From the NCBI RefSeq assembly GCF_024198255.1, contig NZ_JAJVKW010000006.1, positions 62,001-126,000 on the forward strand: a stretch of 64,000 bases of DNA. Reading direction: 5' to 3'. The translations under genes were made by a program, and so were the position numbers. Below the pieces are notes generated by a model. The model was given only the letters and a program-made list of their open reading frames with translations. It was not told the DNA's origin and searched no databases. Origin of the DNA: Myxococcus guangdongensis. Its GTDB lineage: Bacteria; Myxococcota; Myxococcia; Myxococcales; Myxococcaceae. Below are positions 49,460 to 64,000 of the stretch, in pieces; position 1 is the first letter of the stretch; every line of letters starts with the position of its first letter.

Positions 49460-49822
49460 GGGGGCGACCTGGTTTCGACGGGGGCAAGGAAGTTCGAGAC
49501 GCGTGCCGAGCTTGTCAGGTAGCTCGTAAATCCAACCCGGCAAAGACACAAAAGCCAACGACAACGTTGAGCTCGCGCTGGCTGCCTAAAAACAGCTCTT
49601 AGTGCGCGGTCCCCCAACTCTCGGCCCGTGGGGTTGGGATCGACCGTCATAATGCGGGCTGGCTGCCGAGGGTGCCTGGACCCGAGGTGGCGAGACCTAT
49701 CCAGGACCGGCTCTAGGAATCCCGTCCGTGGGAGTCTTGGGGACGTAGCAAATCGCGGACTACGCACGTAGGGTCGAAGAGCGGAAGGCTTTCGGACGCG
49801 GGTTCGATTCCCGCCGCCTCCA
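49460..49822 (+). ncRNA. ssrA: Transfer-messenger RNA (tmRNA)
   Basis: About 363 bases. The acceptor stem GGGGGCG (49460-49466) pairs with CGCCTCC (49815-49821), with one G-U, and the discriminator A is at 49822; the T-loop GGTTCGATTCC (49801) matches a tRNA-like end. The tag frame starts at a GCC resume codon and reads ANDNVELALAA then TAA, ending LALAA as expected for ClpXP recognition. The following bases are CTG, so the CCA is not encoded and must be added. SmpB and SspB are coded at 11.1-12.2 kb. The 3' end is the classic integration site for islands, and an integrase remnant lies next to it. Confidence 0.97.
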
Positions 49823-49831
49823 CTGAGTGAG

Positions 49832-49866
49832 AAGCCCAGCAGCCGAGAGGTTGCTGGGCTTTTTGT
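49832..49866 (+). terminator. Intrinsic terminator after ssrA
   Basis: AAGCCCAGCA and TGCTGGGCTT form a 10-bp stem around a short loop, followed by TTTTGTTT. It ends the tmRNA transcript and lies just outside the mature 3' end. Confidence 0.85.
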
Positions 49867-49945
49867 TTGGCCGCTTGGTTCCCCTGTGCCCTCGGTGACC
49901 ATCCGGCGTCTCGGGTCGGTGCTGCGTGGAACTGGGCACGGGTCG

Positions 49946-50100
49946 GTCGAACTGCTGCACCGCGCGCTCCGTCGCCTCCGACGACAGGTGGGCGTACCCG
50001 ATGATCATCTCGACGGTCTCGTGACCCATCAACTCCTGGATGACCTTGGGCGGAACATTCTGCATAGGAAAGATGCTGGGAGAAGCAGTTGCTCGAGTAG
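49946..50100 (-). pseudogene. Remnant of a tyrosine recombinase (phage integrase) C-terminus
   Basis: On the minus strand, codons at 50059-49946 read PPKVIQELMGHETVEM followed by IIGYAHLSSEATERAVQQFD, the end of an integrase with the active-site region LMGH and the nucleophile Tyr in YAHLS. Just upstream, the expected SHL...MQNV block is split between two frames (FSQHL in one, MQNVPP in the other) at about 50065-50070, a one-base shift. The N-terminal and Arg-containing parts are missing, replaced by the DUF4238 gene. The frame downstream runs on through the tmRNA, as is usual for int genes ending at attL. Confidence 0.85.
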
Positions 50101-50128
50101 GTAGCACTTGTCCTTGCCGAAGACATCC

Positions 50129-50983
50129 ATGCTCAACAATGACGATCATATCCCCAAAAGGCATCACTTTGTCGCGCAGATGCACGCCGACCGATTCACC
50201 GACGGTAAGGGTAAGCTCTGGGCCTTTAACAAGCAGAGAGGAGTGCTTTTTCACGCGCCGCCCAAGGCAGTATTTGTCGAGACACACCTCTACACGATCG
50301 AGGCCTCCGACGGCGTGAAGGACACCAGCCTGGAGTCAGACTTCTCCAAATTGGAGAGTGGTGCCAATAGCATTATTGAGGAGTTGGTGGCTGGTGCAAG
50401 GTCTGGACACGAGCCGCAACTGACGGCCCAGCAACGCACAATCTGGGATGCCTATTTTTATCTTCAGTGGAAGCGAGTGCCGGACGTTCACGCCAAGCTC
50501 GGCTCCCTCACTCAAGCGGATGCCCTACTGGATGAGATCTTCGCACAGATACGAGCACGGAGGCCCGATGCCACAGCGGAGATCGACAAGCTCAATACTC
50601 CCGAAGGGCGCAAGCGCCTGATCCAGGGCGGTAAGGTTCAAGCCATCCGTCGCACCCCAGGCGATGTGCTTGGGATTCTGGCCGCGCGCGGACTAGCGTT
50701 GCTGCACATCACCGCACCTGGCGAGAGTTTCGCCATCGGTAGTCTTCCGATCGTGCGCAAGCCGGGAAATCTCCGCGAGGCCGACTCTGAGGCTTGGCTT
50801 CCTGTATCGTCGGACGTAGCCGTCGGCCCTGGCTTTGAACCCAATACTATAAAAATCATCGAGCTTACCAACCAAGAAGATATCTGGCGGATGAACAAGG
50901 CTACGGCTGGTCAAAGCACGACCTACGCAGCTGGGTCCAAGGTTCTCATGGAGAAGTTAATCGCCGCCCTACCGCAGCCATGA
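50129..50983 (+). CDS. DUF4238 family protein
   Basis: 284 residues from ATG 50129; a TTG at 50108 would add seven. The N-terminus fits DUF4238: HIPKRHHFVAQMHADRFTD, GKLWAFNKQRGVLF, PPKAVFVETHLYT, and helical parts after it (SDFSKLESGANSIIEELVAG). The domain has no known activity; members often lie among mobile or defence genes. There is no signal peptide or membrane segment. The base composition is lower in GC than the core genes (for example actataaaaatcatc near 50,845), a sign of transfer. It points toward the DISARM genes but is 305 bases away, so it may be a passenger or an accessory. Confidence 0.75.
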   Translation: MLNNDDHIPKRHHFVAQMHADRFTDGKGKLWAFNKQRGVLFHAPPKAVFVETHLYTIEASDGVKDTSLESDFSKLESGANSIIEELVAGARSGHEPQLTAQQRTIWDAYFYLQWKRVPDVHAKLGSLTQADALLDEIFAQIRARRPDATAEIDKLNTPEGRKRLIQGGKVQAIRRTPGDVLGILAARGLALLHITAPGESFAIGSLPIVRKPGNLREADSEAWLPVSSDVAVGPGFEPNTIKIIELTNQEDIWRMNKATAGQSTTYAAGSKVLMEKLIAALPQP

Positions 50984-51288
50984 CCGTATCCTCTGGGTTT
51001 CTCGCTCTCCGACATCGAACGCCCTTCCATCACATCGAGGGTGTCTACGGAGGCGAGGGACTCTCACCCAATTCAGTCGCGGCATCCGCTCCTTCTTCGC
51101 TTCCACCTTCGCCGCTGACTACGAAGGTCTCTGTGCTGCGTGGATAGACGTATCGGCGCCCTCAGCCTATTTGGCGGGGGTGACGCCGTTACAGCCCACC
51201 GAGGAGTGAAACTCTACCACCTGGGGGTGATGACTCTACCACCTGGGGGTGATGGCTGGCTACACGCCCGTCGCGGCATGTATCTCCC
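50984..51288. other. Gap upstream of drmD
   Basis: 305 bases without a supported gene. The only clear structure is the 22-base tandem repeat near its end. The first ~200 bases have no ribosome site or recognisable protein similarity and may be remains of a lost element. Confidence 0.5.
51211..51254. repeat. Two perfect 22-base tandem repeats before drmD
   Basis: ACTCTACCACCTGGGGGTGA plus TG, at 51211-51232 and again at 51233-51254, without a mismatch. Each unit has a short inverted core, CACC-TGGG-GGTG. The repeat ends 34 bases before the presumed drmD start. It could be a pair of operators, or the end of a lost insertion element, as IS21-type elements end in several direct repeats. Confidence 0.85.
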
Positions 51289-54200
51289 GTGCCAATCGCT
51301 CCCATGCCGTGCGCGGGTGATATCGCGCAGGTCCGACACCGTCAGTATCTGGTCAACGAGGTCATTGCTCCTTCGGGGGTCCGGGAACAACACACCCTCG
51401 TTCGTCTCACGTGTCTTGATGATGACGCACAGGGACGTCCCCTGTCTGTCTTGTGGGAACGTGAACTCGCTGCTCGGGTCATTCGACCCCATCAGGGTGG
51501 ACTGGGACCTCCTGCGCGTTTCGACGAGCCGCGTCACTTCGCCGCGTATCTGCATGCGCTCAAATGGAGCTCCGTCACCGCCACTGACGCCCGGCTCTTC
51601 CAGGCGCCGTTCCGCGCGGGCATCCATTTGATGAATCACCAGCTCACGCCTCTCAAAAAGGCGCTCGAGCTGCCTCGGGTGAATCTCTTCATCGCCGATG
51701 ACGTGGGGCTCGGAAAGACCATCGAGGCGGGGCTGGTGTTGCAGGAACTCATCCTCCGCCAGCGCGTGGATCGTGTGCTCATCGTCTGCCCGGCGTCGGT
51801 GACGCTCCAGTGGCGCGATGAGATGGAGAAGCGATTCGGTCTGCGCTTCGAAATCTTCAACAGCGAGTTCGTCTCCCGTCGCCGTCAGGAACGTGGCTTC
51901 CAGGTCCCCGTCTGGGCCACGCACTCCCGCTTCATCGTGTCGTACCAGACCCTGCGGCGCAGCGAGTACTTCGAGCCGCTGAAGACCCTCCTGGATGAGA
52001 AGGGGCACCACAAGTCCTTGCTGGTGCTCGACGAGGCGCACGTCGTCGCGCCCGCCTCGGCCAGCCGGTATGCCATCGACACGGAGACCACTCGCAGCAT
52101 CCGCTCACTGGCGGAGCGCTTCGAGCACCGGCTCTTCCTCTCAGCCACTCCTCACAACGGCCACTCCAACAGCTTCTCCGCATTGCTGGAGATGTTGGAC
52201 CCACAGCGCTTCACGCGGGGCACCCGCGTCCGAGAATCACAGCTGGCTCCCGTCATGGTGCGCCGGCTCAAAGGGGACCTCCGCGCCCTCGGCAGCTCAC
52301 AGCGCTACCCCGAACGACACGTGGTGGGTGTGCGGCTGACACATGACTCGGGACGCTGGCACGCCGAGTGGCTCGCCCCGGATGGAAAGACCGTCGAGCA
52401 TCGTATCGATCTGGGCGAAGCCTCAGCACCGGAGCTGGAACTGTCCCAGAAGCTCGCGCGCTACACGGAGCTCATGGCGCCCGGCACGAAGCAGGGACGC
52501 TTGGTCTTCATCAACCTCCAGAAACGCCTCCTCTCCAGCATCGAGGCGTTCCACCGCACACTCTCCATCCACGCGGCGGCCTTCGGCTCGGGGATGCGGG
52601 TTCCCGACGATGGAGTGCTCACCGGCGACACGGCTCCTGATTCCGAGGAGCACGGCGAGACGGACGACGCACTCGAGCTGTCGCTCGCGGAGACCATCCG
52701 CGAGCACAGTCAGCCTCTGTCCGCCAACGCCCAGGCGCGCAAGCTCCTGGAGGACATGCTCCAGCTGAGCGCCCAGCACCGCTCGGCCCGGGACGCGAAG
52801 CTTCGGGCCCTGCTCCACTGGATTCGCGAGCACCAATGCCCGCTCACCCGAGACGCTGCGTGGAAGCCTCGCCGGGTCATCCTCTTCACCGAGTATGGAG
52901 ACACGCTCCGCTACCTCAAGGAGCAGCTCACCGCCGCCTTCGAGGGGACCCAACGGGGGGATGAGCGCATCCTCACGCTGACGGGTGGCATCGATGATGC
53001 GAAGCGCGCGGAGGTGCAGGCCGCCTTCAATGGTTCGATGGATGAGTTCCCCGTGCGGGTCCTCCTCGCGACCGACGCAGCGCGCGAAGGCATCAATCTG
53101 CAAGGCCAGTGCGCGGACCTCTTCCACATCGACGTCCCATGGAATCCATCCCGCATGGAGCAGCGCAACGGCCGCATCGACCGTGCCTTGCAACCTTCGC
53201 CCATCGTGCGCTGTGGCTACTTCGTCTATGGTCAGCGCGCCGAAGACTCGGTGCTCGACTCCCTGGCTCGCAAGGTCGAGACGATCACTCGCGAGCTGGG
53301 CAGCCTGGGCTGCGTGCTGATGGACCAGATGCACGATGCCCTCGCCTCCGGCATCACGAAGGGCACGCTGGAGCGCGTCTCCCGCGCCGCGACCTCGACT
53401 CGCACGGATGTGACGAAACGGGAGCTGGAGTCCCAGCGCACGCTTCAATCCCTGCGCAAGGAGCTGGATGCGATTGGAGAGCTCCGCGATCGCAGCGGCA
53501 AGGTGATGGACTTCAATCCCGTCCTGCTGCGCGATGCGCTGGACGTGGGGTTCGAGCTGGCCGGCGCGGGCCGGTTGGAGCGGGAGGCCATCACGGAAGA
53601 GGGCCGGACACTGGAGGCCTGGAAGGTCCCTGCGCTTCCCGCTTCCTGGAACACGACCCTGGATTCCATTCGTCCGCGCCGGGCGCACGACGAGGCTCCC
53701 TGGGAGTGGCGCAAGCGCCCCCTGTCTCCCGTCGTCTTCGAGGCGCCTCCGGGCGTCTCCAGCAAGCTCGTCCACCTTCACCTGTCCCATCCGCTCGTCC
53801 AGCGAGTGCTCCAGCGGTTCCTGGCGCAGGGGTTCTCCGCGAACGACCTGAGCCGGGTCACGGTGGTCCAGACCCAACGCGACGCAGTGGCTCGTGTCAT
53901 CGTCTTCGGCCGGTTGTCGCTCTTCGGCGAGGGCGCTGCGCGGCTCCATGACGAGGTGGTCTCTGTCTCAGCGAGGTGGCTGGACGGCGGCGGCCGCGGA
54001 CACCTGAAGCCCTTCGCGGATGAGGCGGACCGCAAGGTCATCGACCAACTGGAGACCACGCTGGCGGAAGCGCCCGCGCTCTCCGCGATACCGAAGGCCG
54101 TCCAGAAACGCCTGCTGGCCAGCGCCGAGTCCGACTTCTCGAAGCTCTGGCCCGCCATCGAGGAGCAGGCCTCGGTGCGAGAGCAGGGGGCTCGCAAGAA

Positions 54201-54483
54201 GCTGGCGGCGCGGGGGGCGTCCGAAGCCAAGGCGCTGACTCTGATTCTCCAGACGCAGCAGGAGACCATCCAGGAGGCCCTGAGCGCGCAGCTCGAGCTC
54301 TCCCTCGACGCCCAGGCCGAGAAGGACCAATGGAGGAGGGACAAGGTTCATCTCGAACAGCGATTGACGGCGCTCGGAAGGGAACTCGTCGAACAACCTG
54401 AATCATTGAAGGCCACCTATGCCGTGAGGGTCGCCCGGCTGGTGCCAGTGGGCATGGTCTACCTGTGGCCGGGGGCGCGCTGA
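51289..54483 (+). CDS. drmD: DrmD: SNF2-like helicase of class 1 DISARM
   Basis: 1,064 residues from GTG 51289; ATG 51304 is an alternative, and neither has a clear ribosome site. The family beginning is present (VRHRQYLVNEVI, TLVRLTCLDDDAQG, LSVLWERELAARVI). The helicase motifs are intact: DDVGLGKTIEAG at 137-148 (Walker A), DEAH at 248-251, SATPHNGH from 285, and in the second lobe ATDAAREGINLQ and QRNGRIDRALQ (motif VI, ~625). A large C-terminal region with helices follows. In class 1 DISARM this SNF2-type ATPase is the hallmark with the methylase. It overlaps the next gene by one base at TGATG. Confidence 0.92.
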   Translation: MPIAPMPCAGDIAQVRHRQYLVNEVIAPSGVREQHTLVRLTCLDDDAQGRPLSVLWERELAARVIRPHQGGLGPPARFDEPRHFAAYLHALKWSSVTATDARLFQAPFRAGIHLMNHQLTPLKKALELPRVNLFIADDVGLGKTIEAGLVLQELILRQRVDRVLIVCPASVTLQWRDEMEKRFGLRFEIFNSEFVSRRRQERGFQVPVWATHSRFIVSYQTLRRSEYFEPLKTLLDEKGHHKSLLVLDEAHVVAPASASRYAIDTETTRSIRSLAERFEHRLFLSATPHNGHSNSFSALLEMLDPQRFTRGTRVRESQLAPVMVRRLKGDLRALGSSQRYPERHVVGVRLTHDSGRWHAEWLAPDGKTVEHRIDLGEASAPELELSQKLARYTELMAPGTKQGRLVFINLQKRLLSSIEAFHRTLSIHAAAFGSGMRVPDDGVLTGDTAPDSEEHGETDDALELSLAETIREHSQPLSANAQARKLLEDMLQLSAQHRSARDAKLRALLHWIREHQCPLTRDAAWKPRRVILFTEYGDTLRYLKEQLTAAFEGTQRGDERILTLTGGIDDAKRAEVQAAFNGSMDEFPVRVLLATDAAREGINLQGQCADLFHIDVPWNPSRMEQRNGRIDRALQPSPIVRCGYFVYGQRAEDSVLDSLARKVETITRELGSLGCVLMDQMHDALASGITKGTLERVSRAATSTRTDVTKRELESQRTLQSLRKELDAIGELRDRSGKVMDFNPVLLRDALDVGFELAGAGRLEREAITEEGRTLEAWKVPALPASWNTTLDSIRPRRAHDEAPWEWRKRPLSPVVFEAPPGVSSKLVHLHLSHPLVQRVLQRFLAQGFSANDLSRVTVVQTQRDAVARVIVFGRLSLFGEGAARLHDEVVSVSARWLDGGGRGHLKPFADEADRKVIDQLETTLAEAPALSAIPKAVQKRLLASAESDFSKLWPAIEEQASVREQGARKKLAARGASEAKALTLILQTQQETIQEALSAQLELSLDAQAEKDQWRRDKVHLEQRLTALGRELVEQPESLKATYAVRVARLVPVGMVYLWPGAR

Positions 54484-57400
54484 TGAACGGCCAGAGTCTT
54501 GGCGGGGACGTCGAGCGTCGCTATCACCAGACCTGGATGGGGATGGCGCAGCCCATCGAAGGACTGGTGGTCTCCATCCCGGTCCTCGAGGACGCGCAGT
54601 GCATGCAGCGCCTGCCGGTGTCCGCGCAGTCGCGGTTCGTCCTGCTGGCGGGCCGGGAGTCACCTCGCGTGACGGATGTCCCGCGCTTCCTCCAGGAGGT
54701 GCTGGGCTACACCGAGGAGGATTTCACCACGAGGTTTCCGGAGGACCTCCAGCTCGATATCGCCGAGGGGCAACAGACCCTCAATCCCACGCGGGGGCTG
54801 TTGCGGCGAGGGCCCCCTCCCGCGAAGCCGGAAGGGTTACCGGATGACTCCACGCCCATCAGCCGCGCTGCGGAAGGCTTCGCGCTCCTGACCTGGGAGC
54901 TGCCGGCCGGGTTGGATCTGGACAAGAAGGAAGACACCACGGGCACGTGGTTCTACGAGCCCACCGCCAAGTTCGATCGCCTGCTGCGCGCGGCCCGTGT
55001 CCCCATCGGTCTGCTGTTCAACGGGGACTCCGTGCGCCTCGTCTATGCGCCCCACGGAGAGACGTCAGGGCACATCACCTTCCGGTTCAAGGACCTCGTC
55101 ACCGCCAGTGGCCGTCCGCTGTTCGACGCGATGGTGATGCTCCTGCACGCGCGTCGCTTCTTCGGCGTGCTGCCCGAGCATCAGCTTCCCGCGCTCCTGG
55201 AGCAGTCACGCGGCCGGCAGGCGGATGTCACCGACGACCTGGCCGACCAGGTTCTGGAAGCGCTTGGCATCCTCCTCACGGGCTTCGAGACGGCCGCAGA
55301 ACGGGATGGCTCCCGGGCCCTGGACGAGGCGCTCTCTCGAGGGGAGGAACATGTCTACGGCGGGCTCCTCTCCACGCTCTTGCGGCTCGTGTTCATCCTC
55401 TACGCGGAGGACCGGGGCCTGCTCCCCGTGGACCAGGAGCCCTATCGCGATGATCTGTCGGTGAAGGCGCTTCACGCCCAACTCGTCGAGGACTCCAGCC
55501 AATATCCCGATTCGATGAACCGGCGGTTCGGTGCGTGGCCACGATTGCTGGCGCTCTTCCGGTGCATCTACCTGGGGGCCTCGCACGACAAGCTGCGAAT
55601 GCCGGCACGGCGTGGACAACTCTTCGACCCAGACACGTTCCCCTTCCTGGGAGGCACGGGCTCCGCCGAGGCGGGCACGGATGCTCGGGTGCCTCCCATT
55701 GATGACGAGACGGTGCTCCAGGTACTGGAGCGGCTCGTCTTCCTCAAGGGACAGCGACTGAGCTTCAAGTCGCTCGACGTGGAGCAGATCGGCTCCGTGT
55801 ACGAGGGCCTGATGGGCTTCCACGTGAAGCGCCTGAGTGGTGCTGGAGTCTGCCTCAGGCCTTCGAAGGTGTGGGTCTCCGTGGACGAGGTGCTGGCCCA
55901 GCCCGCGAAGCGGCGTGCTGCATGGCTGGAAGAGGAGGCGGGCCTCGACGCGAAGGCGGTGAAAGCCCTGTCGAAGGCGTTGGAGCATGCCTCCACGCAG
56001 CAGATGGTCCTGGCCGCGCTGGAGTCGTACCGCGCGAAGGGGACCGAGACACGGCGAGCATCCCAGCTGGTACTCCAGCCTGGCGCCGGGCGGCGACGGA
56101 CCAGCAGCCACTACACGCCTCGAAGTCTGTCAGCGCCCATCGTCCGCCGGGCTCTGGAGCCTCTGCTCAAGACGATGGGGTCGCAGCCGTCTTCCGAGAG
56201 ACTCCTCAACCTGAAGATCTGTGACCCGGCCATGGGGTCTGGTGCGTTCCTGGTGGAGTCCTGCCGCTTTCTCGCAGACCAGGTTGTTGCCGCCTGGACA
56301 CGTGAGGGCGTGCTGAAGCGAGACAAGCACGAGGACGAGGTAATGCGGGCACGCCGGCTGGTGGCCCAGCGATGCCTGTACGGCGTGGACAAGAATCCCT
56401 GGGCCGTGCAGCTCGCGAAGCTGTCGCTGTGGCTCGTGACTTTGGCGAAGACAGAGCCGTTCACCTTCTTGGACCATGCGCTCAAGTGCGGGGATTCGCT
56501 GGTTGGGCTCGACCTGGAGCAGCTTCGAGCGTTCCACTGGGACCCGAGCAGCAAGAAACAGTCGGAGCTACCCTGGGCGTTCATCTCGAAGGCGCTGAAC
56601 AGCTCGCTGGAGAAGCGCGAGAAGATCCTCCAGCTCGCGCTCGACCTGGAAGGGCCGGAACGCAAGCCGCTGCAGTTAGACCTGGAGCCGGGCAGGGTGA
56701 AGGAGGGGCTTCTCCGGGATGCGGACGCGGCGTTGGAGGACATCAAGCACATCGCCAATGCGTGCGTCGGGGCGTTCTTCGCGCATGGCTCGGACAAGGA
56801 GCGGGAGAAAGAGCGAGTCCGCCGGTTGGACCTGATTGGGGCGTGGCTGTCCAAGTCGAAGAACGAGGTGCCGCCTCCCATGCCGCCGGACATCGTGGCG
56901 TTCTCCGCGCCGTCATGGACATTCCACTGGCCGCTGGAGTTCCCGGAGGTGTTCCACGGGAGCCGGCCGGATCCGCTCGACAACGAGCAGCCCAACAAGG
57001 CTGCCTGGATCGATGGGTTCGTGGGGAACCCGCCGTTCGCGGGAAAGAACACCATCATCGAGACGGTCGGAGAGAACTACCTTCCTTGGCTCCAGGCGGT
57101 TCATGCGGGAGCGCACGGCAACGCGGATCTCTCCGCGCACTTTTTCCGCCGTGCGTTCCATCTGCTGGGTGACCACGGCAGCTTCGGATTCATCGCCACC
57201 AACACCATCGCGCAGGGGGACACGAGAGCCACGGGACTGAAGTACCTGGTGGATCACGGCGGCCACCTCTACGACGCCGTGCGCTCCATGAAGTGGCCCG
57301 TCTCTGGAGCGAACGTCTCGGTGTCCGTCGTGCACCTGGCGAAGGGGCACGTCTCCGTGAATTTGGAGCCGCGCCTCGAGCGGCTACCCGTGAAACACCT

Positions 57401-58397
57401 CAACTCTCGACTGAGAGGAAAGCCCGAGCGAGCAGATCCCGTGGCACTCACCACCAACACGGGGAAGAGCTTCCAGGGATGCACCGTCCTTGGAATGGGG
57501 TTCGTGCTCAGCCCCGAGCAGCGAGCAGCGCTCGTCGCGAAGTCACCCAGGAACGTGGAGCGCATCTTTCGCTATGTGGGCGGAGAAGAAATCAATTCCG
57601 ACCCCAAGCCGAGCCTTGAAAGGTATGTCATCAACTTCGGGCAGATGGCACTACAGGAGGCGGAGCGCTGGCCGGAACTCCTTCGCATCGCACGGGAGTT
57701 GGTGAAGCCTGAGCGAGATAAAACAAAGGACAGAGGAGCGAGGCAGTTCTGGTGGCAATTCAGCCGATCGCGTCCCGAACTCCAGGAAGCACTTCGTAAG
57801 TCGGAGCGCTGCCTTGCAATCAGCATTGTCTCCAAGCACCTCGTGTTTGACTGGCGGCCAACGGGCGTCGTTTTTTCAAATACAGCTGCTGTCTTCGTCC
57901 TGAGTCATGATTGCTGGCTCACATTGCTGCAGTCACGGGTGCATGAGGTCTGGGCACAGTTGCTGTCATCCTCCATGCGCAACGATCTTCGTTATGCACC
58001 TAGTGACTGCTTCGAAACCTTCCCCTTCCCGGACTCCGCAAGCACCTCGGCGCTCAATGCGATAGGTGAACGGCTCCACTCCGAGCGCAGCCAGTACATG
58101 CAGGCCAACAACATAGGCCTGACGACGACATACAACCGGCTCACGGACAAGTCCGTCACCGACACAGCGACGCAGCGCCTGCGGGACCTGCACGTGGCCG
58201 TGGACCAAGCTGTACTGGATGCCTACGGCTGGGAGGACATCCAGGTCCCTCCGTACTGCGGCGCCACTCCCAGACAGCTCGAAGCCTTCGAGGATGAAGT
58301 TCTCGACCGCCTCTTCGACCTGAACGAACGCCGTGCCTACGAGGAAGCCCACCCCACCGTCCGCCGTGCCACGAAGTCCCGCGTCCAGACCGCCTGA
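54483..58397 (+). CDS. drmMI: DrmMI: N6-adenine methyltransferase of class 1 DISARM
   Basis: 1,304 residues from ATG 54483, which overlaps the drmD stop (TGATG); a GTG six codons earlier is possible. It is an Eco57I/PglX-like methylase: SAM motif DPAMGSGAFLVES at ~581 and catalytic NPPF at 849-852 (GNPPFAGKN), with a YHQ-rich N-terminal domain and a target-recognition-like C-terminal region (YNRLTD). In DISARM the methylase marks host DNA so that it is spared. It lies between drmD and drmA, the class 1 order. The length matches PglX/DrmMI proteins (about 1,200-1,300). Confidence 0.92.
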   Translation: MNGQSLGGDVERRYHQTWMGMAQPIEGLVVSIPVLEDAQCMQRLPVSAQSRFVLLAGRESPRVTDVPRFLQEVLGYTEEDFTTRFPEDLQLDIAEGQQTLNPTRGLLRRGPPPAKPEGLPDDSTPISRAAEGFALLTWELPAGLDLDKKEDTTGTWFYEPTAKFDRLLRAARVPIGLLFNGDSVRLVYAPHGETSGHITFRFKDLVTASGRPLFDAMVMLLHARRFFGVLPEHQLPALLEQSRGRQADVTDDLADQVLEALGILLTGFETAAERDGSRALDEALSRGEEHVYGGLLSTLLRLVFILYAEDRGLLPVDQEPYRDDLSVKALHAQLVEDSSQYPDSMNRRFGAWPRLLALFRCIYLGASHDKLRMPARRGQLFDPDTFPFLGGTGSAEAGTDARVPPIDDETVLQVLERLVFLKGQRLSFKSLDVEQIGSVYEGLMGFHVKRLSGAGVCLRPSKVWVSVDEVLAQPAKRRAAWLEEEAGLDAKAVKALSKALEHASTQQMVLAALESYRAKGTETRRASQLVLQPGAGRRRTSSHYTPRSLSAPIVRRALEPLLKTMGSQPSSERLLNLKICDPAMGSGAFLVESCRFLADQVVAAWTREGVLKRDKHEDEVMRARRLVAQRCLYGVDKNPWAVQLAKLSLWLVTLAKTEPFTFLDHALKCGDSLVGLDLEQLRAFHWDPSSKKQSELPWAFISKALNSSLEKREKILQLALDLEGPERKPLQLDLEPGRVKEGLLRDADAALEDIKHIANACVGAFFAHGSDKEREKERVRRLDLIGAWLSKSKNEVPPPMPPDIVAFSAPSWTFHWPLEFPEVFHGSRPDPLDNEQPNKAAWIDGFVGNPPFAGKNTIIETVGENYLPWLQAVHAGAHGNADLSAHFFRRAFHLLGDHGSFGFIATNTIAQGDTRATGLKYLVDHGGHLYDAVRSMKWPVSGANVSVSVVHLAKGHVSVNLEPRLERLPVKHLNSRLRGKPERADPVALTTNTGKSFQGCTVLGMGFVLSPEQRAALVAKSPRNVERIFRYVGGEEINSDPKPSLERYVINFGQMALQEAERWPELLRIARELVKPERDKTKDRGARQFWWQFSRSRPELQEALRKSERCLAISIVSKHLVFDWRPTGVVFSNTAAVFVLSHDCWLTLLQSRVHEVWAQLLSSSMRNDLRYAPSDCFETFPFPDSASTSALNAIGERLHSERSQYMQANNIGLTTTYNRLTDKSVTDTATQRLRDLHVAVDQAVLDAYGWEDIQVPPYCGATPRQLEAFEDEVLDRLFDLNERRAYEEAHPTVRRATKSRVQTA

Positions 58398-58405
58398 GCC
58401 CTCAC

Positions 58406-61400
58406 ATGAATGCCACTGACACGGGAGCGGTCCGCTCCCACCTCATCGATGCGCTCGAAGCGGACCTCGTGGGTCCGTTCCACAAGCCTCCGGGTGCTCC
58501 TGTCTCGGACGCCACGGAAGTGCTCCGCACACCACCGTCCCGCTGGTATCTGACTGGCTTCCTTGTCCCGCTCGACCAGGGTGTTATCGATGATGACCCC
58601 GACGATGAGGAAGACGACCTGGCCGCAGGCAATGACGAGGACGACGAGGAATCCTCCCGCCCTGACCCGACCGCCAAGAAGGTCCGCCGCCTGCCCGCGT
58701 CCATGGGCCTGTCCGTCTTCGTCCCCGCGGGCACTTCCCAGCTCACGGCCCATGTCTGCTGGGCGGACTACCAGCGCCTCGACGCAGAGGAGCGCAAGCA
58801 CTGGCGTCGTACCTTCCATCAGCGCACCGTCACTCTGCACCTGGACGACGCGGCGCTGCGGGAAGGTCTGTACCTCCAGGACAGCGGTGGCCTGCGCCTG
58901 GAAGGCCACGTGGAGAAGACTCGCGAAGGCGAGCTCGCGGTCGCCATCTTCCTCGTCAACGCTCGCCCTCCCACCAGCACCTCCGCCGACAGGGACGAGG
59001 CCTACGTCTTCCAAACCCACCTCGCCCTGGAATGCGCGCAGGGCTTCGTCAGCCGACAGGACTCCAGCGACGCCAGGAGCGAGGACGAGGACGACCTCGT
59101 CAACGACCTCCAGTTCCGCGACCGCCAGCGGTGGGCCGTGGGCCATGGCATCTCCGTTCGCGTCCCCGTCGCCTCCGTCCCCGTCACCCGCGTCGAAACA
59201 GACTGGCTGCCACGCGTCGAGGTGCTCCCCGTCGAAGCGCGGCAGATTGACGAAGTCACGGTGGGCATGGAGCAGCTCGCCGCGTTCACGACACCTTCGG
59301 AGGCCGTAGCGGCCCTGCTCCCCCTGGTCCGGGCCTACCGTGAATGGGTGACCACCCAGGCCACGGTCGCTGTCGGGAGCGAACGCCGCGAGGAGACTCG
59401 AGATGAGCTCATTCGCAGGGCTCGACGCGCGGCGGATCGCATCGAGGACGGCATCCAAATCCTGGCCCGGGAACCTCTCGCCTTCGACGCCTTCCGCTGG
59501 ATGAACAGCGTCATGGCTCAGTCGGAACGCAAGGTCCGACAGGACGAGGCTCCCAAATGGCGGCTCTTCCAGCTCGCCTTCATCCTGCTCAACCTCCCCT
59601 CCGTCGAGCACGAAGGCCACGCGGACCGTGAGCTCGTGGAGCTCATCTTCTTCCCCACCGGCGGCGGGAAGACGCAGGCCTACCTGGGCCTCATTGCCTT
59701 CACCTTGCTCCTGCGTCGCCTCCGAGGGCAATCCCACCTCCACGGCGGCCTGGGCGTGGCCGTGCTGCTTCGCTACACGCTGCGGCTGCTCACACTCGAC
59801 CAGCTCGGTCGCGCCGCGACCCTCATCTGCGCGCTCGAAGTGCTCCGCCAGCAGGAGCCCAAACGTCTGGGCATCGTGCGCTTCTCCATCGGACTGTGGG
59901 TCGGTCGCTCCGCGACCGCCAACACGCTGGAGCAGGCCTCCACTCAAATCACCGAGTACAAGAACGACAACAGCGCCCGCGCCCAATCGCCGTTCCCGCT
60001 CGCCACCTGCCCCTGGTGCGCCACGCCGTTCGAACGGGAGTGCTTCATCCTCCGACCCTCCAAGTCCAGACCCGAGGGGGTGCTCGTCGGCTGCGCCAAC
60101 ATCGCGTGCGCCTTCAACCTGGGCCGCAACCCAGAAGGGCTCCCCGTCCTCTTCGTCGACGAGCAGATCTACCGCGAGCTGCCGTGCTTCCTCGTCGCCA
60201 CCGTGGACAAGTTCGCCATGCTGCCGTGGCGTGGCGAGACGGGGCTGCTCTTCGGCCGAGTCCTCGGTCGCACCGGCAAGCGCTTCGTCGGTCCGTGCAA
60301 CGACGCCGCGGACGTGAAGGCGGCGCTCGTGATGCTCCCGAAGGGGCTGCCTCCCCCAGAGCTCATCGTGCAGGACGAACTGCACCTCATCTCCGGCCCG
60401 CTGGGCTCCATGGTGGGCCTCTACGAAGGCGCCGTCCTGACACTCGCGCCCCGAGCGAAGCTGGTGGCCTCCACCGCCACCGTCCGCCGCTCCCGACAAC
60501 AGGTGAGTCGCCTCTATGGACGGGACGTCGCGCTCTTCCCTCCGCCCGGCGTGGATGCCTCCGAGACGTTCTTCGCCTCCGTGGGCAAGAAGGGCGCGCG
60601 CCAATACGTCGGCGTGGCGGCACCCGGGCGGCCCATGAAGGCCCTCCTGCTGCGCGTCTATGTCAGCCTGCTCGCCGCCGCCGCGCGCGGCGAACAACTC
60701 CACGGCGCCGTGAGCGCGGACCCGTACCTGACGCTCGTCGGCTACTTCAACAGCCTGCGAGAACTGGGCGGCATGCGCCGACTGGTCGAGGACGAGGTGC
60801 GCCGACTGGTGATGGACCGCGTCCGCCGTCGTCCCGAGGACTTCAGCAAGGACGCCGAGCATCCCTGGTACCGGGGCAGGACCATCCGCGGCGAGCCCAT
60901 CGAGTTGACCAGCCGGGAGAAGACCGCCGACATCAAGGTCTCGAAGAACCGCCTGGAGCTCACGCACGGCCAGCCCCAGAGCATCGATGTCGTGCTCGCC
61001 AGCAACATGATCTCCGTCGGCGTGGACATCGACCGGTTGGGCCTCATGGTCGTGGCGGGACAGCCCAAGACGACCAGCGAGTACATCCAGGCGTCCAGCC
61101 GCGTGGGCCGAAAGATGAACAAGCCCGGCCTCGTGGTGACGTGTCTCAACGCGGCCAAGCCTCGAGACCGCAGCCACTACGAGCGCTTCGGGACGTACCA
61201 CGAGTCGTTCTATCGCTTCGTCGAAGCCACCTCGGTGACTCCCTTCTCCGCACCGGCGCTCGACCGGGGGCTCGCGGGCGTGGTGGTGGCCCTGGGCCGG
61301 CTGCTGGACACCGCCATGACCGCGCCCCTGGAGTGGAAGTCCTTGCAGGCGCACCGGGACGCGCTGGAGCAGGCGCTCGAGATCCTGGCGAAGCGCGCGG

Positions 61401-61744
61401 GCCGAGGACTGCCCACGGAGGAGGCGGAGCGCGCCAGCGACATCGTGATGCAGCGCGCACGCGGCCTGCTCGACTCGTGGCACAACATCATCGAGCAGGC
61501 GAAGAAGGACGCCGCCGAGCGCGCGTACTCGCCCTACGACCCGGCGGGGAAGGGGCTCAAGCCCCTGCTGCGCGGCTTCCTGGACCGCACCGACAACCTC
61601 ACCCAGGACGAGCTCAAGTTCGAGGCGCCCACGTCCATGCGCGACGTGGAGTCCTCGGTGCACCTGTGGATTTCACGTCAACCCCTGGGCGGCTACCGCG
61701 CCCCGAAGGCCGCGACGGAGGAGGTGGCGAATGACGAACCGTAG
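58406..61744 (+). CDS. drmA: DrmA: DISARM helicase
   Basis: 1,112 residues, starting eight bases after the drmMI stop. Superfamily 2 motifs: PTGGGKT at 417-423, DELH at 657-660 (QDELHLISGPLGSM), STATVRRSRQQ, SNMISVGVDIDRLGLM, and QASSRVGR at ~894-901. An inserted zinc-ribbon-like segment lies between motifs I and II (CPWCATPF, GCANIACAF). DrmA is part of the DISARM core with DrmB; the published complex binds DNA and is autoinhibited by an internal loop. Its stop overlaps drmB by 14 bases, so the two are coupled. Confidence 0.93.
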   Translation: MNATDTGAVRSHLIDALEADLVGPFHKPPGAPVSDATEVLRTPPSRWYLTGFLVPLDQGVIDDDPDDEEDDLAAGNDEDDEESSRPDPTAKKVRRLPASMGLSVFVPAGTSQLTAHVCWADYQRLDAEERKHWRRTFHQRTVTLHLDDAALREGLYLQDSGGLRLEGHVEKTREGELAVAIFLVNARPPTSTSADRDEAYVFQTHLALECAQGFVSRQDSSDARSEDEDDLVNDLQFRDRQRWAVGHGISVRVPVASVPVTRVETDWLPRVEVLPVEARQIDEVTVGMEQLAAFTTPSEAVAALLPLVRAYREWVTTQATVAVGSERREETRDELIRRARRAADRIEDGIQILAREPLAFDAFRWMNSVMAQSERKVRQDEAPKWRLFQLAFILLNLPSVEHEGHADRELVELIFFPTGGGKTQAYLGLIAFTLLLRRLRGQSHLHGGLGVAVLLRYTLRLLTLDQLGRAATLICALEVLRQQEPKRLGIVRFSIGLWVGRSATANTLEQASTQITEYKNDNSARAQSPFPLATCPWCATPFERECFILRPSKSRPEGVLVGCANIACAFNLGRNPEGLPVLFVDEQIYRELPCFLVATVDKFAMLPWRGETGLLFGRVLGRTGKRFVGPCNDAADVKAALVMLPKGLPPPELIVQDELHLISGPLGSMVGLYEGAVLTLAPRAKLVASTATVRRSRQQVSRLYGRDVALFPPPGVDASETFFASVGKKGARQYVGVAAPGRPMKALLLRVYVSLLAAAARGEQLHGAVSADPYLTLVGYFNSLRELGGMRRLVEDEVRRLVMDRVRRRPEDFSKDAEHPWYRGRTIRGEPIELTSREKTADIKVSKNRLELTHGQPQSIDVVLASNMISVGVDIDRLGLMVVAGQPKTTSEYIQASSRVGRKMNKPGLVVTCLNAAKPRDRSHYERFGTYHESFYRFVEATSVTPFSAPALDRGLAGVVVALGRLLDTAMTAPLEWKSLQAHRDALEQALEILAKRAGRGLPTEEAERASDIVMQRARGLLDSWHNIIEQAKKDAAERAYSPYDPAGKGLKPLLRGFLDRTDNLTQDELKFEAPTSMRDVESSVHLWISRQPLGGYRAPKAATEEVANDEP

Positions 61745-63578
61745 GAAGTGGACCCGGGCCCGCTCGACGCGGCCTCCGGATGGGCGCGTGCGCCAGAGCC
61801 AGGTGGTCTCCACCTTCGGTCCGGGCAGCATGCTGGACCTGCTGAACGATGCAGTCTTGGTGGGCGGCCTGGACTTCTGGCGGCTCAAGGGGCAGGGCGA
61901 GGTGGTCAACGAACCACGGCTCCTGGAGATCGTCGAACCGCTGTACCACCGCAACAAGTGGCCGCTCAGCAAGGAGGCTCCCTTCCGCAAGCCCCCGGCT
62001 GGCGACGAGCGAGAGCCGACGGAGTCCTGCGGCATCCAGGTGTATGAGTTCCCGCGCTGGTTCGTCTGCCAGAACCCCCACTGCCGCACGCTGGTTCGGG
62101 CCAACAGCCTGGAGCGCGTGAACCAGGAGTACCGCCACCGCTGCGCGGGTGTGGACGCGAAGCCCGAGCGCTGCGTTCCGGTGCGCTTCGTCACGGCCTG
62201 TCCTCGGGGACACCTGTCGGACATCGACTGGACCTGGTGGATGCACGAGCGCAAGCCTTGCGACGCCCCTCAGCTCAAGCTCGAGGAGGGGGTGAGTGGT
62301 GATTTCAGTGACATCGAGGTCGCGTGCTCGACGTGCGGCAAGCGCAGGCGCCTCATCGACATGACCCACAAGGAGCAGCAGGACCGCTGCGACGGGGAGC
62401 GGCCCTGGCTGGGATTGGAGGCGCGGGAGCGCTGCGACGAGAAGCAGCGACTGCTGGTCCGCACCGCCAGCAACGGCTACTTCGCGCAGACCACCAGCGC
62501 CATCACCATCCCTGAGCCGGAGTCGCTCCGGCGCAAGGTGCAGTCCGCGTGGAGCATCCTCCAGTCCGCCACCGCGGAGACGCTGCCGGCCTTCCGGACC
62601 ATCCCCCAGGTTCAGGCGGCGCTGGGCTCCGCCTCCAACGGGGAGGTGCTGGCGGCCATCACCGCGGAGCGCGAGCACATGCCCGAAGCCGTCCCGGAGA
62701 TTCGCACCGCGGAGTGGCTCCAGTTCCTCGCGCAGCCTCAAGAGAAGCCTGGCGAGATGCCCAGGGATCGCACCGAGGTCTTCTGGGCCCGGCGCATCGC
62801 TCGGCCCCAGGGACTGCCCCCGCTGGTCGAACGCGTGGTGCTGGCGCGGCGGCTGCGGGAGGTCCAGGCCCAGGTCGGCTTCACGCGGCTGGAGCCCCTC
62901 TCGAAGGACCTCCAGGGCCGCTACGACCTGGACGTGGCGCTCGCGCCGATGTCGCTCCACCGGGACTGGGTCCCCGTCACGGAGATGCAGGGCGAGGGCA
63001 TGCTGCTGGTGCTCGACGAGCAGCAGGTGCATGCCTGGGAGATGTCCGAGCCCGTGCTGCGGCGCGAAGAGGTGCTCCGGGCAGGATATGAGCGCTGGAA
63101 GCAGGGCTCCGGTTCGAAGCTCCCGTTCCCGGGCGTGCGGCTCTACCTGCTCCATTCGCTGGCGCACCTGTTGATGACCCAGGTGGCGCTGGAGTGTGGC
63201 TATCCCGCGAGCTCCATCCGCGAGCGGCTCTACTGCGCGCCGCACAGCGACGCCGTCCCCATGGCGGGCATCTTGTTGATGACGGGCACCACGGGCGCGG
63301 AAGGCACGCTGGGCGGTCTGGTGGAGGAGGGGAGGCGGCTGGGGCAGCACCTCGCCCGGGCGCTGGAGGATGCACGCTTGTGCTCCAACGACCCTGTCTG
63401 CGCGCATCACGAACCCACGGGCCGTGATGACCGCGACCTGGAGGGCGCCGCGTGCCACGGGTGCCTCTTCCTCCCCGAGTGCTCCTGCGAGCGTTTCAAT
63501 CAGTATCTCGACCGCGCGCTCGTCGTGCCCACGCTGGGCCACGAGGACGTTGCCTTCCTGAAAGCGTCGTGGACCTGA
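61731..63578 (+). CDS. drmB: DrmB: DUF1998 protein of DISARM
   Basis: 615 residues. The N-terminus has RQSQVVSTFGPGSMLDLLND, the DrmB beginning. A Cys-rich part (CQNPHCRTLV, CSTCGKRRRL) precedes the C-terminal DUF1998 domain with HSLAHLLMTQVALECGYPAS, MTGTTGAEGTLGGL and the zinc-binding end CSNDPVC ... CHGCLFLPECSCERF. DrmB works with DrmA as the core complex on DNA. The gene overlaps drmA by 14 bases. It is the last supported gene in the window; the drmC gene that usually follows is not seen. Confidence 0.93.
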   Translation: MTNRRKWTRARSTRPPDGRVRQSQVVSTFGPGSMLDLLNDAVLVGGLDFWRLKGQGEVVNEPRLLEIVEPLYHRNKWPLSKEAPFRKPPAGDEREPTESCGIQVYEFPRWFVCQNPHCRTLVRANSLERVNQEYRHRCAGVDAKPERCVPVRFVTACPRGHLSDIDWTWWMHERKPCDAPQLKLEEGVSGDFSDIEVACSTCGKRRRLIDMTHKEQQDRCDGERPWLGLEARERCDEKQRLLVRTASNGYFAQTTSAITIPEPESLRRKVQSAWSILQSATAETLPAFRTIPQVQAALGSASNGEVLAAITAEREHMPEAVPEIRTAEWLQFLAQPQEKPGEMPRDRTEVFWARRIARPQGLPPLVERVVLARRLREVQAQVGFTRLEPLSKDLQGRYDLDVALAPMSLHRDWVPVTEMQGEGMLLVLDEQQVHAWEMSEPVLRREEVLRAGYERWKQGSGSKLPFPGVRLYLLHSLAHLLMTQVALECGYPASSIRERLYCAPHSDAVPMAGILLMTGTTGAEGTLGGLVEEGRRLGQHLARALEDARLCSNDPVCAHHEPTGRDDRDLEGAACHGCLFLPECSCERFNQYLDRALVVPTLGHEDVAFLKASWT

Positions 63579-63969
63579 GCAGCGTGGCGACGTTGGACCT
63601 GTCAACGGCCACGACAGTGCGGCCACGGAGACTGGGTTCAGCCTGAGCTTTCTAGTGTGGCCTTGGCGTCACTAGGTGTGTCTGTCCGTGGGGACGACGG
63701 ACTTTGCATGCGCCTCCACGCGTGCCCATCCCTTCAGTGTGAGCGCAGGATCTTCGCTCACCGTGGTGGCCCGGAGGTCTGTCAGTCTTTTCACGCGAGT
63801 GGGACAACCTTCGGTCCACCCATTGTGCCAAACCACACTTGTTGGAAATCGGACTTGCGGCTAAGACGGCTCAGGGCCTGGTCGGGGAGCTGGTTCGAGC
63901 GCGCGTCAGGGGGAAATCAGCAACCCGTCTCCTCGCGGCCCTCCATTTCGCGCGCAAAGGAAATCCTTC
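63579..63969. other. 391 bases downstream of drmB without a supported gene
   Basis: A hairpin CTAGTG (63652-63657) and CACTAG (63670-63675) lies ~75 bases after the drmB stop, without a U-run. A 62-codon frame at 63676-63864 has no ribosome site or protein-like composition and is not called. No phospholipase-D HxK motif (drmC) is readable in any frame. A weak TTGTTG-17-TAAGAC at 63839-63867 may serve the gene that begins at 63970. Confidence 0.5.
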
Positions 63970-64000
63970 ATGTATCGTTGTATGCAAGCCGTGTTCGCCA
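63970..64000 (+). CDS. 5' end of a gene that leaves the window
   Basis: ATG 63970 reads MYRCMQAVFA up to the window edge, with AAAGGA at 63956-63961, eight bases upstream. Ten codons are too few to identify it. It could be the next island gene or the host gene after the right junction. Confidence 0.35.
   Translation, partial: MYRCMQAVFA

What the first reader, a model, noticed from the sequence alone, without database searches (positions are those of the whole stretch)
49823..64000. Class 1 DISARM in an island at the tmRNA gene
Seen: drmD, drmMI, drmA, drmB in the class 1 order with overlapping or nearly touching junctions (1-base overlap, 8-base gap, 14-base overlap), all key motifs intact, directly after ssrA with an integrase remnant. 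Known: DISARM blocks phages through a DrmAB complex and a host-marking methylase. Inference: the set arrived by integration into ssrA and is now fixed, since the integrase is dead.
Basis: partly seen in the sequence, partly recalled or inferred. Interest (0 to 1): 0.75.

Follow-up and report, generated by a model that had tools for sequence, protein, structure and literature searches.

The report
Phage-defence operon with swappable DNA-tagging specificity
This is a real class 1 DISARM phage-defence operon beside the tmRNA gene of a Myxococcus; its last gene has been cut off, and across the genus the part of its DNA-tagging enzyme that should read the target sequence is reshuffled piece by piece, which makes the question of how DISARM tells own DNA from foreign DNA testable.

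Summary
Four adjacent genes at 51289-63578 score best as DISARM DrmD, DrmMI, DrmA (short form) and DrmB, 1.47 kb after ssrA, behind an integrase remnant. Three things change the picture. (1) drmC, the usual fifth class 1 gene, is truncated here: 10 of 14 genus members with this operon keep an intact 228-codon drmC; 4 (this one included) break at codons 11, 12, 14 and 50. (2) The operon travels. Its divergence between 13 species is unrelated to that of the ssrA flank (Mantel r 0.11), and at two non-ssrA sites it follows a copy of the ssrA 3' end. (3) The target-recognition domain of DrmMI is a mosaic: synonymous diversity rises from about 0.2 to 0.4-0.6 only over codons 961-1193, recombination is detected only there, and 13 species show 11 combinations of three blocks. 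Polymorphic residues align with MmeI's base-reading residues 773, 774, 806 and 808; 806/808 form two covarying charge-swapped pairs. I infer that DISARM specificity is reassorted by recombination while DrmD, DrmA and DrmB stay nearly constant, so motif reading probably resides in DrmMI. Methylation motifs and phage defence were not measured.

The parts
49460..49823 (+). ssrA (tmRNA) gene; its last 26 bases (49798-49823) are the repeated attachment core
   Evidence: one copy only in own genome at up to 3 mismatches
49934..50077 (-). C-terminal remnant of a tyrosine integrase of the ssrA-integrating kind
   Evidence: 26 of 48 residues identical to the 407-aa integrase beside ssrA in G018; Pfam Phage_integrase 19.5 bits (cut-off 27.1) on the remnant, 114.6 bits on the intact relative
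50108..50983 (+). DUF4238 gene between ssrA and DISARM; role unknown
   Evidence: PF14022 74.2 bits; no PADLOC or NCBIfam hit
51289..54483 (+). drmD, SNF2-like helicase
54465..58397 (+). drmMI, MmeI-like adenine methyltransferase (ATG start at 54483 also possible)
   Evidence: PADLOC DrmMI 1253 bits; Pfam MmeI_Mtase and MmeI_TRD; MmeI 5hr4 E=1.1e-22 with a profile
57345..58079 (+). hypervariable, recombining target-recognition domain of drmMI (codons 961-1205, counted from the GTG at 54465)
57879..57884 (+). codons 1139-1140, aligned with MmeI base-reading residues 773 and 774
   Evidence: gapless alignment; polymorphism
57978..57986 (+). codons 1172-1174 (R-N-D here), aligned with MmeI 806-808
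58406..61744 (+). drmA, short form (DrmAS), YprA-like helicase, with an acidic linker at residues 61-82, roughly in the place of the Serratia trigger loop
   Evidence: NF038325 1107.5 bits; 7s9v E=4.6e-167, local alignment from residue 87 to 7s9v 225
61731..63578 (+). drmB, MrfA-type Zn-binding (DUF1998) protein
   Evidence: NF038324 545.2 bits; 7s9v_B E=2.2e-93
63569..63601 (+). truncated start of drmC (about 11 codons; the frame runs 25 codons and ends)

Best explanation
A class 1 DISARM operon (drmD-drmMI-drmA-drmB) that came to the ssrA attachment site on an integrative element and later lost its last gene, drmC. Shown: the four genes are DISARM by profile; drmC is truncated here and, at other points, in three other genomes; the operon moves as a unit between Myxococcus species; the DrmMI target-recognition domain is MmeI-like and is reassorted by recombination in segments. 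Inferred from published work: DrmMI marks host DNA by methylating adenine in a short motif; DrmAB loads on unmethylated DNA with a 5' overhang and blocks or hands over the invader, DrmD supplying a second motor; another PLD nuclease, or none, replaces DrmC. Inferred here: each segment of the recognition domain sets part of the motif (the 806/808 pair E-R against R-D would give C or G next to the methylated adenine), so segment exchange gives each species its own mark. Because DrmD, DrmA and DrmB stay nearly constant while the recognition domain changes, either DrmMI itself is the motif reader or the effector reads no motif.
For: Profiles; relatives of solved structure by sequence, Serratia DrmAB. 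drmC: intact 228-codon frame in 10 of 14 genus operons and truncated at four different points in 4; the one intact copy tested scores 133 bits against a cut-off of 133 for DISARM_DrmC_I; no hit over cut-off in the own genome. Movement: flank distances 0.013-0.200, drmD+A+B distances 0.029-0.073, Mantel r 0.11, p 0.22, 13 genomes, 70 of 78 pairs less diverged in DISARM than in the flank (the flank is one 0.9-kb stretch upstream of ssrA); operon genes correlate with each other (r 0.68-0.84) but hardly with the flank (at most 0.22). Recognition domain: pS 0.41-0.61 in codons 961-1193 against 0.10-0.24 in the windows before it; clustering of incompatible sites only there (0 of 500 shuffles as low; p 0.18-0.88 elsewhere); 11 A/B/C combinations in 13 genomes (block borders and clustering thresholds were my choice); the domain correlates weakly with its own operon (r 0.16-0.29). 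Base-reading residues: gapless alignment with MmeI and RND/EDR covariation, 9 and 9 of 18; in MmeI E806-R808 specifies C:G and K806-D808 G:C (passages of PMC4833311, and PMC4081073). drmC-less copies show no excess of private nonsynonymous changes.
Against: No methylome or phage assay exists for these strains here. R-D is not K-D: the C-to-G reading of that pair is by analogy. The AlphaFold model of the DrmMI C-terminal half is poor (pLDDT 65.6), and although Foldseek ranks MmeI first (E 3.3e-12) the TM-score is only 0.27-0.28, so the residue mapping rests on sequence. Of the four base-reading sites, 774 ranks 4th of 179 in entropy, but 773, 806 and 808 rank only 40th, 45th and 47th; the joint enrichment is modest (p 0.017). 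The recombination test cannot tell 'no recombination' from 'saturated' in the other genes. The domain does correlate weakly with drmD and with the rest of drmMI (p 0.018 and 0.009). The drmC losses may be recent, so the constraint comparison has little power; and three of the four breaks lie within four codons of each other, so one early truncation followed by different replacements is not excluded for these. A type IIG profile matches DrmMI at 569.6 bits.
Confidence: 0.75

Rival explanations
1. An ordinary class 1 DISARM operon whose methyltransferase simply evolves fast in its recognition domain by point mutation under relaxed constraint, with no exchange.
For: pN is also raised there (0.24-0.29 in the most variable windows); specificity domains are usually the least conserved part of methyltransferases (general knowledge).
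Against: Relaxed constraint does not double or triple synonymous diversity. Multi-nucleotide allele classes occur in many combinations (B with C 6 of 6, A with B 9 of 12) and incompatibilities cluster spatially only there. A 4-residue insertion allele is shared with a Corallococcus whose DrmMI is only 76% identical overall.
Confidence: 0.1
2. The operon is inherited vertically in Myxococcus and has only been lost often; ssrA adjacency is ancestral.
For: Present in 14 of 27 genus genomes, 10 of these within about 85 kb downstream of ssrA on the same contig.
Against: Distances decoupled from the flank (Mantel r 0.11). The nearest relative G005 differs by 0.022 in the flank but 0.059 in DISARM, and G013 by 0.197 in the flank but 0.070 in DISARM. 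Position relative to ssrA varies from about 1 kb to 85 kb, and other copies sit on other contigs (G003, G011) or 8.6 Mb away (G015).
Confidence: 0.05
3. A decaying, non-functional DISARM: loss of drmC is the first step of pseudogenisation.
For: drmC and the integrase are truncated; the right side has been replaced by DNA unrelated to that behind drmB in the relatives compared.
Against: Four long frames are intact. Private nonsynonymous/synonymous codon ratios in the three drmC-less copies are not higher than in the ten drmC-bearing ones (drmD 0.32 against 0.44, drmA 0.46 against 0.47, drmB 0.24 against 0.40, drmMI outside the domain 0.50 against 0.61). DrmC is described as dispensable and often missing (passages of PMC9142583).
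Confidence: 0.15

Closest known systems
DISARM of Serratia sp. SCBI (DrmAB structures 7s9v/7s9w, PMC9142583)
   Same: DrmA and DrmB homologous along most of their length; an adenine methyltransferase belongs to the operon.
   Different: DrmA here is the short form: the local alignment starts at residue 87 against 225, so it has 138 residues less before that point, where an EVE-like domain and the trigger loop are described for class 1 (passages of PMC12458937); that the EVE-like domain is missing is inferred from length. drmC is truncated. Serratia also has a cytosine methyltransferase; I did not test for one here.
MmeI family (type IIL restriction-modification; 5hr4)
   Same: DrmMI shares the methyltransferase core and the target-recognition domain and varies at aligned residues that read bases 3, 4 and 6.
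   Different: DrmMI has no match over cut-off to the MmeI N-terminal domain (MmeI_N 23.0 bits, cut-off 27); effectors are separate genes.
BREX, PglX/BrxX as site reader (PMC11842806)
   Same: One methyltransferase with a recognition domain is needed for both mark and defence, and changing that domain changes specificity (passages). The proposed logic is the same.
   Different: BREX profiles score far below DISARM profiles here.
Specificity switching by domain movement in Helicobacter methyltransferases (PMC3983042) and hsdS loci (PMC7394358)
   Same: Recombination reassorts parts of specificity domains (search listing and abstract start only).
   Different: There in classical R-M systems; here between species in DISARM.

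Membership tests
DISARM, any class | drmA helicase and drmB (DUF1998/MZB) adjacent | tested here: met
   NF038325 1107.5 and NF038324 545.2 bits, both over cut-off
DISARM class 1 | drmD SNF2-like helicase in the operon | tested here: met
   NF038317 1070.9 bits, cut-off 610
DISARM class 1 | drmMI adenine methyltransferase in the operon | tested here: met
   PADLOC DrmMI 1253 bits; NPPF and DPAMGSG present; NCBIfam listed no DISARM model for it
DISARM class 1 | drmC PLD nuclease at the end of the operon (typical, described as dispensable) | tested here: not met
   Only about 11 codons remain; no genome hit over the NF038319 cut-off
DISARM | Protects against phage | not testable with these tools
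   needs an assay
DISARM | Host DNA is methylated by DrmMI | not testable with these tools
   needs long-read methylation calls
BREX | PglX/BrxHI profiles score best | tested here: not met
   PglX 31.4 bits against DrmMI 1253; BrxHI 209.6 against DrmD 1029.9
Genomic island at ssrA | Breakpoint at ssrA in relatives | tested here: met
   Collinearity ends at 49822-50053 in all 25 relatives read, of 26
Genomic island at ssrA | Direct repeat (attR) at the far end | tested here: not met
   One copy of the 26-base core in the own genome at up to 3 mismatches; far end not located

The most novel reading that the evidence does not exclude
Myxobacterial DISARM is a specificity-shuffling defence system. 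Exchangeable sub-segments of one DrmMI recognition domain each set a base of the host mark, DrmMI is the only motif reader (as BrxX is in BREX), and DrmD, DrmA and DrmB are motif-blind engines that work with any mark, so species of one genus carry mutually foreign marks over a common engine.
Probability: 0.35. Interest if true: 0.72.

Novelty: new variant of a known kind. Interest (0 to 1): 0.5.

Why it matters
What reads the methylation mark in DISARM is unsettled: the structural work proposes discrimination by DNA structure together with some sensitivity of DrmAB to methylation (passages and one section of PMC9142583). A genus in which nearly identical DrmD, DrmA and DrmB come with at least 11 recognition-domain combinations in 13 genomes is a ready natural experiment. 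If an effector protein read the motif, it should change with the recognition domain; it hardly does. The same set gives four natural drmC truncations against ten intact operons, a test of drmC dispensability outside the laboratory. It also links DISARM to the well-worked MmeI recognition code, so that motifs become predictable.

Tried and rejected
Far end of the island: no second ssrA 3'-end core in the own genome at up to 3 mismatches. A 4-kb downstream probe gave repetitive matches in all 27 genomes. A flank shared by G009 and G025 looked like a right border, but the same sequence lies on other contigs or far from ssrA in other genomes, so I do not use it as the empty site. A palindromic operator before drmD was suspected; alignment of 16 upstream regions showed no consistent one. 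Origin of the DNA that replaced drmC: of 26 relatives only G008 matches the 399 bases after it, and only bases 112-399. Plasmid carriage: tblastn of DrmMI in the plasmid collection gave 427 records, none at 60% identity or more, best listed 41.8%, so no close plasmid copy is held. Structure: the DrmMI C-terminal model is poor, and its MmeI match has TM 0.27-0.28; not used as proof. A second DISARM set was looked for in the own genome: the other MZB hit (C7, 842-aa frame) has no DrmA partner by the DrmAS profile.

Rows dropped: G021 has only part of drmMI (its recognition domain is 37-49% identical) and is left out of the 13-genome statistics. In one search, seven of the 25 DrmA sequences given were left out (one had a stop; six as a precaution). 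Two of the 18 DrmMI rows (Corallococcus CA053C, PMG_225) contain one stop each in the stretch that I cut; not examined further. One search returned 80 of 96 relatives. Its 44 more distant DrmA loci (L170-L213) gave no hit with the Myxococcus drmC query and were not examined for their own drmC.
Full report
WHAT IS THERE. The window is G000:C6:62001-126000 of an 11.2-Mb genome. The genus is Myxococcus: contigs of five genus members match in length named records (M. vastator, M. eversor, M. xanthus AM003, M. qinghaiensis, and one filed as 'Comamonas sp. KCTC 72670', which I take to be misnamed). ssrA ends at 49823. PADLOC places all four in DISARM, far above BREX; NCBIfam does so for drmD, drmA and drmB, over the curated cut-offs, and lists no DISARM model for drmMI. 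The nearest competitor is a type IIG restriction-methyltransferase profile on drmMI, 569.6 bits against 1253. DrmA and DrmB match the Serratia DrmAB structure at E=4.6e-167 and 2.2e-93. DrmA is the short form; the local alignment begins at residue 87 against Serratia 225, and an acidic linker (residues 61-82), present by eye in the other 17 rows of the alignment, sits roughly where the Serratia trigger loop (residues 176-232) lies. That it works as a trigger loop is inference.

DRMC IS TRUNCATED. A DISARM_DrmC_I search of the own genome found 18 partial matches and none over the cut-off. After drmB, a GTG frame overlapping the drmB stop begins like drmC and runs into unrelated DNA after about 11 codons. 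In the 14 genus genomes with this operon, 10 carry an intact 228-codon frame there and 4 (G000, G005, G016, G021) break after about 11, 12, 14 and 50 codons with different DNA behind each. G021 comes from a fragmented assembly (8.3-kb contig). The one intact copy that I tested scores 133 bits at a cut-off of 133 and has a PLD active-site motif. Among the 36 loci L134-L169, 32 give a drmC match; of the other four, three are on short contigs that end there (L146, L152, L166) and one (L164, a Nostoc MAG) gives none. Five of the 36 are genomes of the genus set, and L134 is the G021 truncation. So a five-gene operon is ancestral. I read the breaks as separate losses; since three lie within four codons of each other, one early truncation with later replacements is not excluded for these. 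The three measurable drmC-less copies do not show relaxed constraint in drmD, drmA, drmB or the rest of drmMI, though recent loss would give the same result. This agrees with DrmC being described as dispensable and often missing (passages of PMC9142583). The own genome's other PLD-like proteins could serve instead, as that paper proposes.

THE OPERON TRAVELS. DrmAS over the cut-off occurs in 15 of 27 genus genomes. Fourteen (own included) have this operon, DrmA 93.5-96.0% identical to the window; the fifteenth (G022) is a different DISARM at 37%. In 10 of these 14 it lies downstream of ssrA on the same contig, at about 1 to 85 kb. In G015 (8.6 Mb from ssrA) and G011 (another contig) it lies 226 and 366 bp behind a copy of the ssrA 3' end (0 and 2 mismatches). 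G003 has no such copy within the stretch read, and G021's contig is too short. Further copies of the core are scattered through the genus: 17 of 27 genomes gave more than one match, the most being 13 with ssrA counted (at most 22 candidates scored a genome). Twenty such places were read; their left flanks are of several kinds, some shared between genomes, and about a third continue with ssrA-terminator-like sequence, as expected for att sites of integrative elements. The stretch collinear with ssrA ends at 49822-50053 in all 25 relatives read (of G021 no full ssrA was found), and frames of 404-418 residues with integrase motifs adjoin ssrA in G011, G012, G014, G018, G019 and G024 (only that of G018 was tested in Pfam). 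For 13 genomes, distances in drmD+drmA+drmB (0.029-0.073) are unrelated to distances in a 0.9-kb flank upstream of ssrA (0.013-0.200; Mantel r 0.11, p 0.22); in 70 of 78 pairs DISARM is the less diverged, in 8 it is not. The genes of the operon correlate with each other at r 0.68-0.84, so it moves as a block. No plasmid record holds a close copy (best listed DrmMI identity 41.8%).

THE RECOGNITION DOMAIN IS SHUFFLED. DrmMI carries MmeI_Mtase and MmeI_TRD domains. In 13 genomes, mean pS is 0.10-0.24 per 40-codon window over codons 1-960, 0.41-0.61 over 961-1193, and 0.29, 0.18 and 0.17 after that; drmD, drmA and drmB have 0.170, 0.158 and 0.133, and drmC (10 genomes) 0.095. Raised synonymous diversity bounded inside one domain means old alleles brought in by recombination rather than loss of constraint. 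Three blocks (A, four classes; B, three; C, two; borders and thresholds mine) occur in 11 distinct combinations in 13 genomes; A-B 9 of 12 and B-C 6 of 6 possible pairs are seen. A PHI-type test of my own (window 100 bases, 500 shuffles) finds clustering in codons 960-1205 (0 of 500) but not in drmD (0.88), drmA (0.51), drmB (0.70) or drmMI 1-955 (0.18). The fraction of incompatible site pairs is high everywhere (0.40-0.46), so recombination outside the domain is not excluded. The domain correlates with its own operon at only r 0.16-0.29, of which two values are significant (drmD p 0.018, rest of drmMI p 0.009). Block alleles cross genus borders: Citreicoccus and Corallococcus carry similar block types, in part in further combinations (by eye).

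WHICH RESIDUES VARY. Two alignments (single sequence; profile of 21 sequences, E=1.1e-22) place codons 1139 and 1140 on MmeI 773 and 774 and 1171-1176 on MmeI 805-810 without gaps. In MmeI, 773 (with 751) reads base pair 3, 774 and 810 read pair 4, and 806 and 808 read pair 6; E-R gives C:G and K-D gives G:C (passages of PMC4833311 and PMC4081073). Across 18 DrmMI sequences, 806-807-808 are R-N-D in 9 and E-D-R in 9, with no mixed form; 773 is N, H, E or D; 774 is T, S, G, Q or A; 810 is always R. The four sites together are more variable than random sets of four in the domain (p 0.017), not overwhelmingly so. The published Serratia DISARM motif ACAC(mA)G (passage) has the MmeI layout of a base after the methylated adenine; whether its enzyme has K/R-x-D could not be tested. 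The structure prediction did not help: pLDDT 65.6, and MmeI as best Foldseek hit but with TM 0.27-0.28.

READING. DrmMI marks host DNA at a motif set by its recognition domain; DrmAB and DrmD act on unmarked DNA. When the recognition domain changes, mark and reading must change together or the cell attacks itself. Since DrmD, DrmA and DrmB barely follow the domain, the simplest account is that the same domain does both, as BrxX does in BREX (passages of PMC11842806), or that the effector reads DNA structure only, as proposed for Serratia (section read). Both are testable by domain swaps.

NOVELTY. Searches of the paper library with 'drmMI' (24 papers hold it, 23 listed, many unrelated), 'DISARM' with 'MmeI' (6 papers, all listed), DISARM with target recognition domain, methyltransferase and recombination (294 papers, 15 listed), and DISARM with myxobacterial terms (901 papers, 15 listed) showed, by title and abstract start of the rows listed, nothing on recognition-domain exchange in DISARM. 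I read passages of PMC9142583, PMC12458937, PMC4081073, PMC4833311, PMC7365801, PMC9716671 and PMC11842806, and one section of PMC9142583. Ofir et al. 2018 is not held; what I say of class definitions beyond those passages is recalled.

Noticed in passing
window 49798-49823; L114-L133: The 25-26 base 3' end of ssrA recurs at scattered sites (17 of 27 genus genomes gave more than one match), some of them megabases from ssrA, about a third of those read followed by ssrA-terminator-like sequence: secondary or relocated att sites of ssrA-integrating elements.
   Followed up: partly
G021 (L103 3-965; L134): In M. vastator the DrmMI recognition domain is only 37-49% identical to the others while DrmA and DrmB are 95-98% identical to the window: an apparent whole-domain replacement.
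   Followed up: partly
window 50108-50983: A DUF4238 gene in a stretch of lower G+C (0.56-0.60) lies between the integrase remnant and DISARM; unknown function, possibly another defence or island gene.
   Followed up: no
L110, L111, L112, L113: G024, G016, G012 and G026 hold distant DrmA/DrmB pairs (DrmA 33-36%) below the DrmAS cut-off, in G016 as a second DISARM-like set.
   Followed up: no
window 63970 to L004:3498: After the drmC break come a protein with a GDSL-lipase match below cut-off and a second protein that shares its internal repeat ('RIGxxKTNGEAYVKEG').
   Followed up: partly
window 51211-51254: Two tandem 22-base repeats just upstream of drmD; no consistent operator across relatives.
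   Followed up: partly
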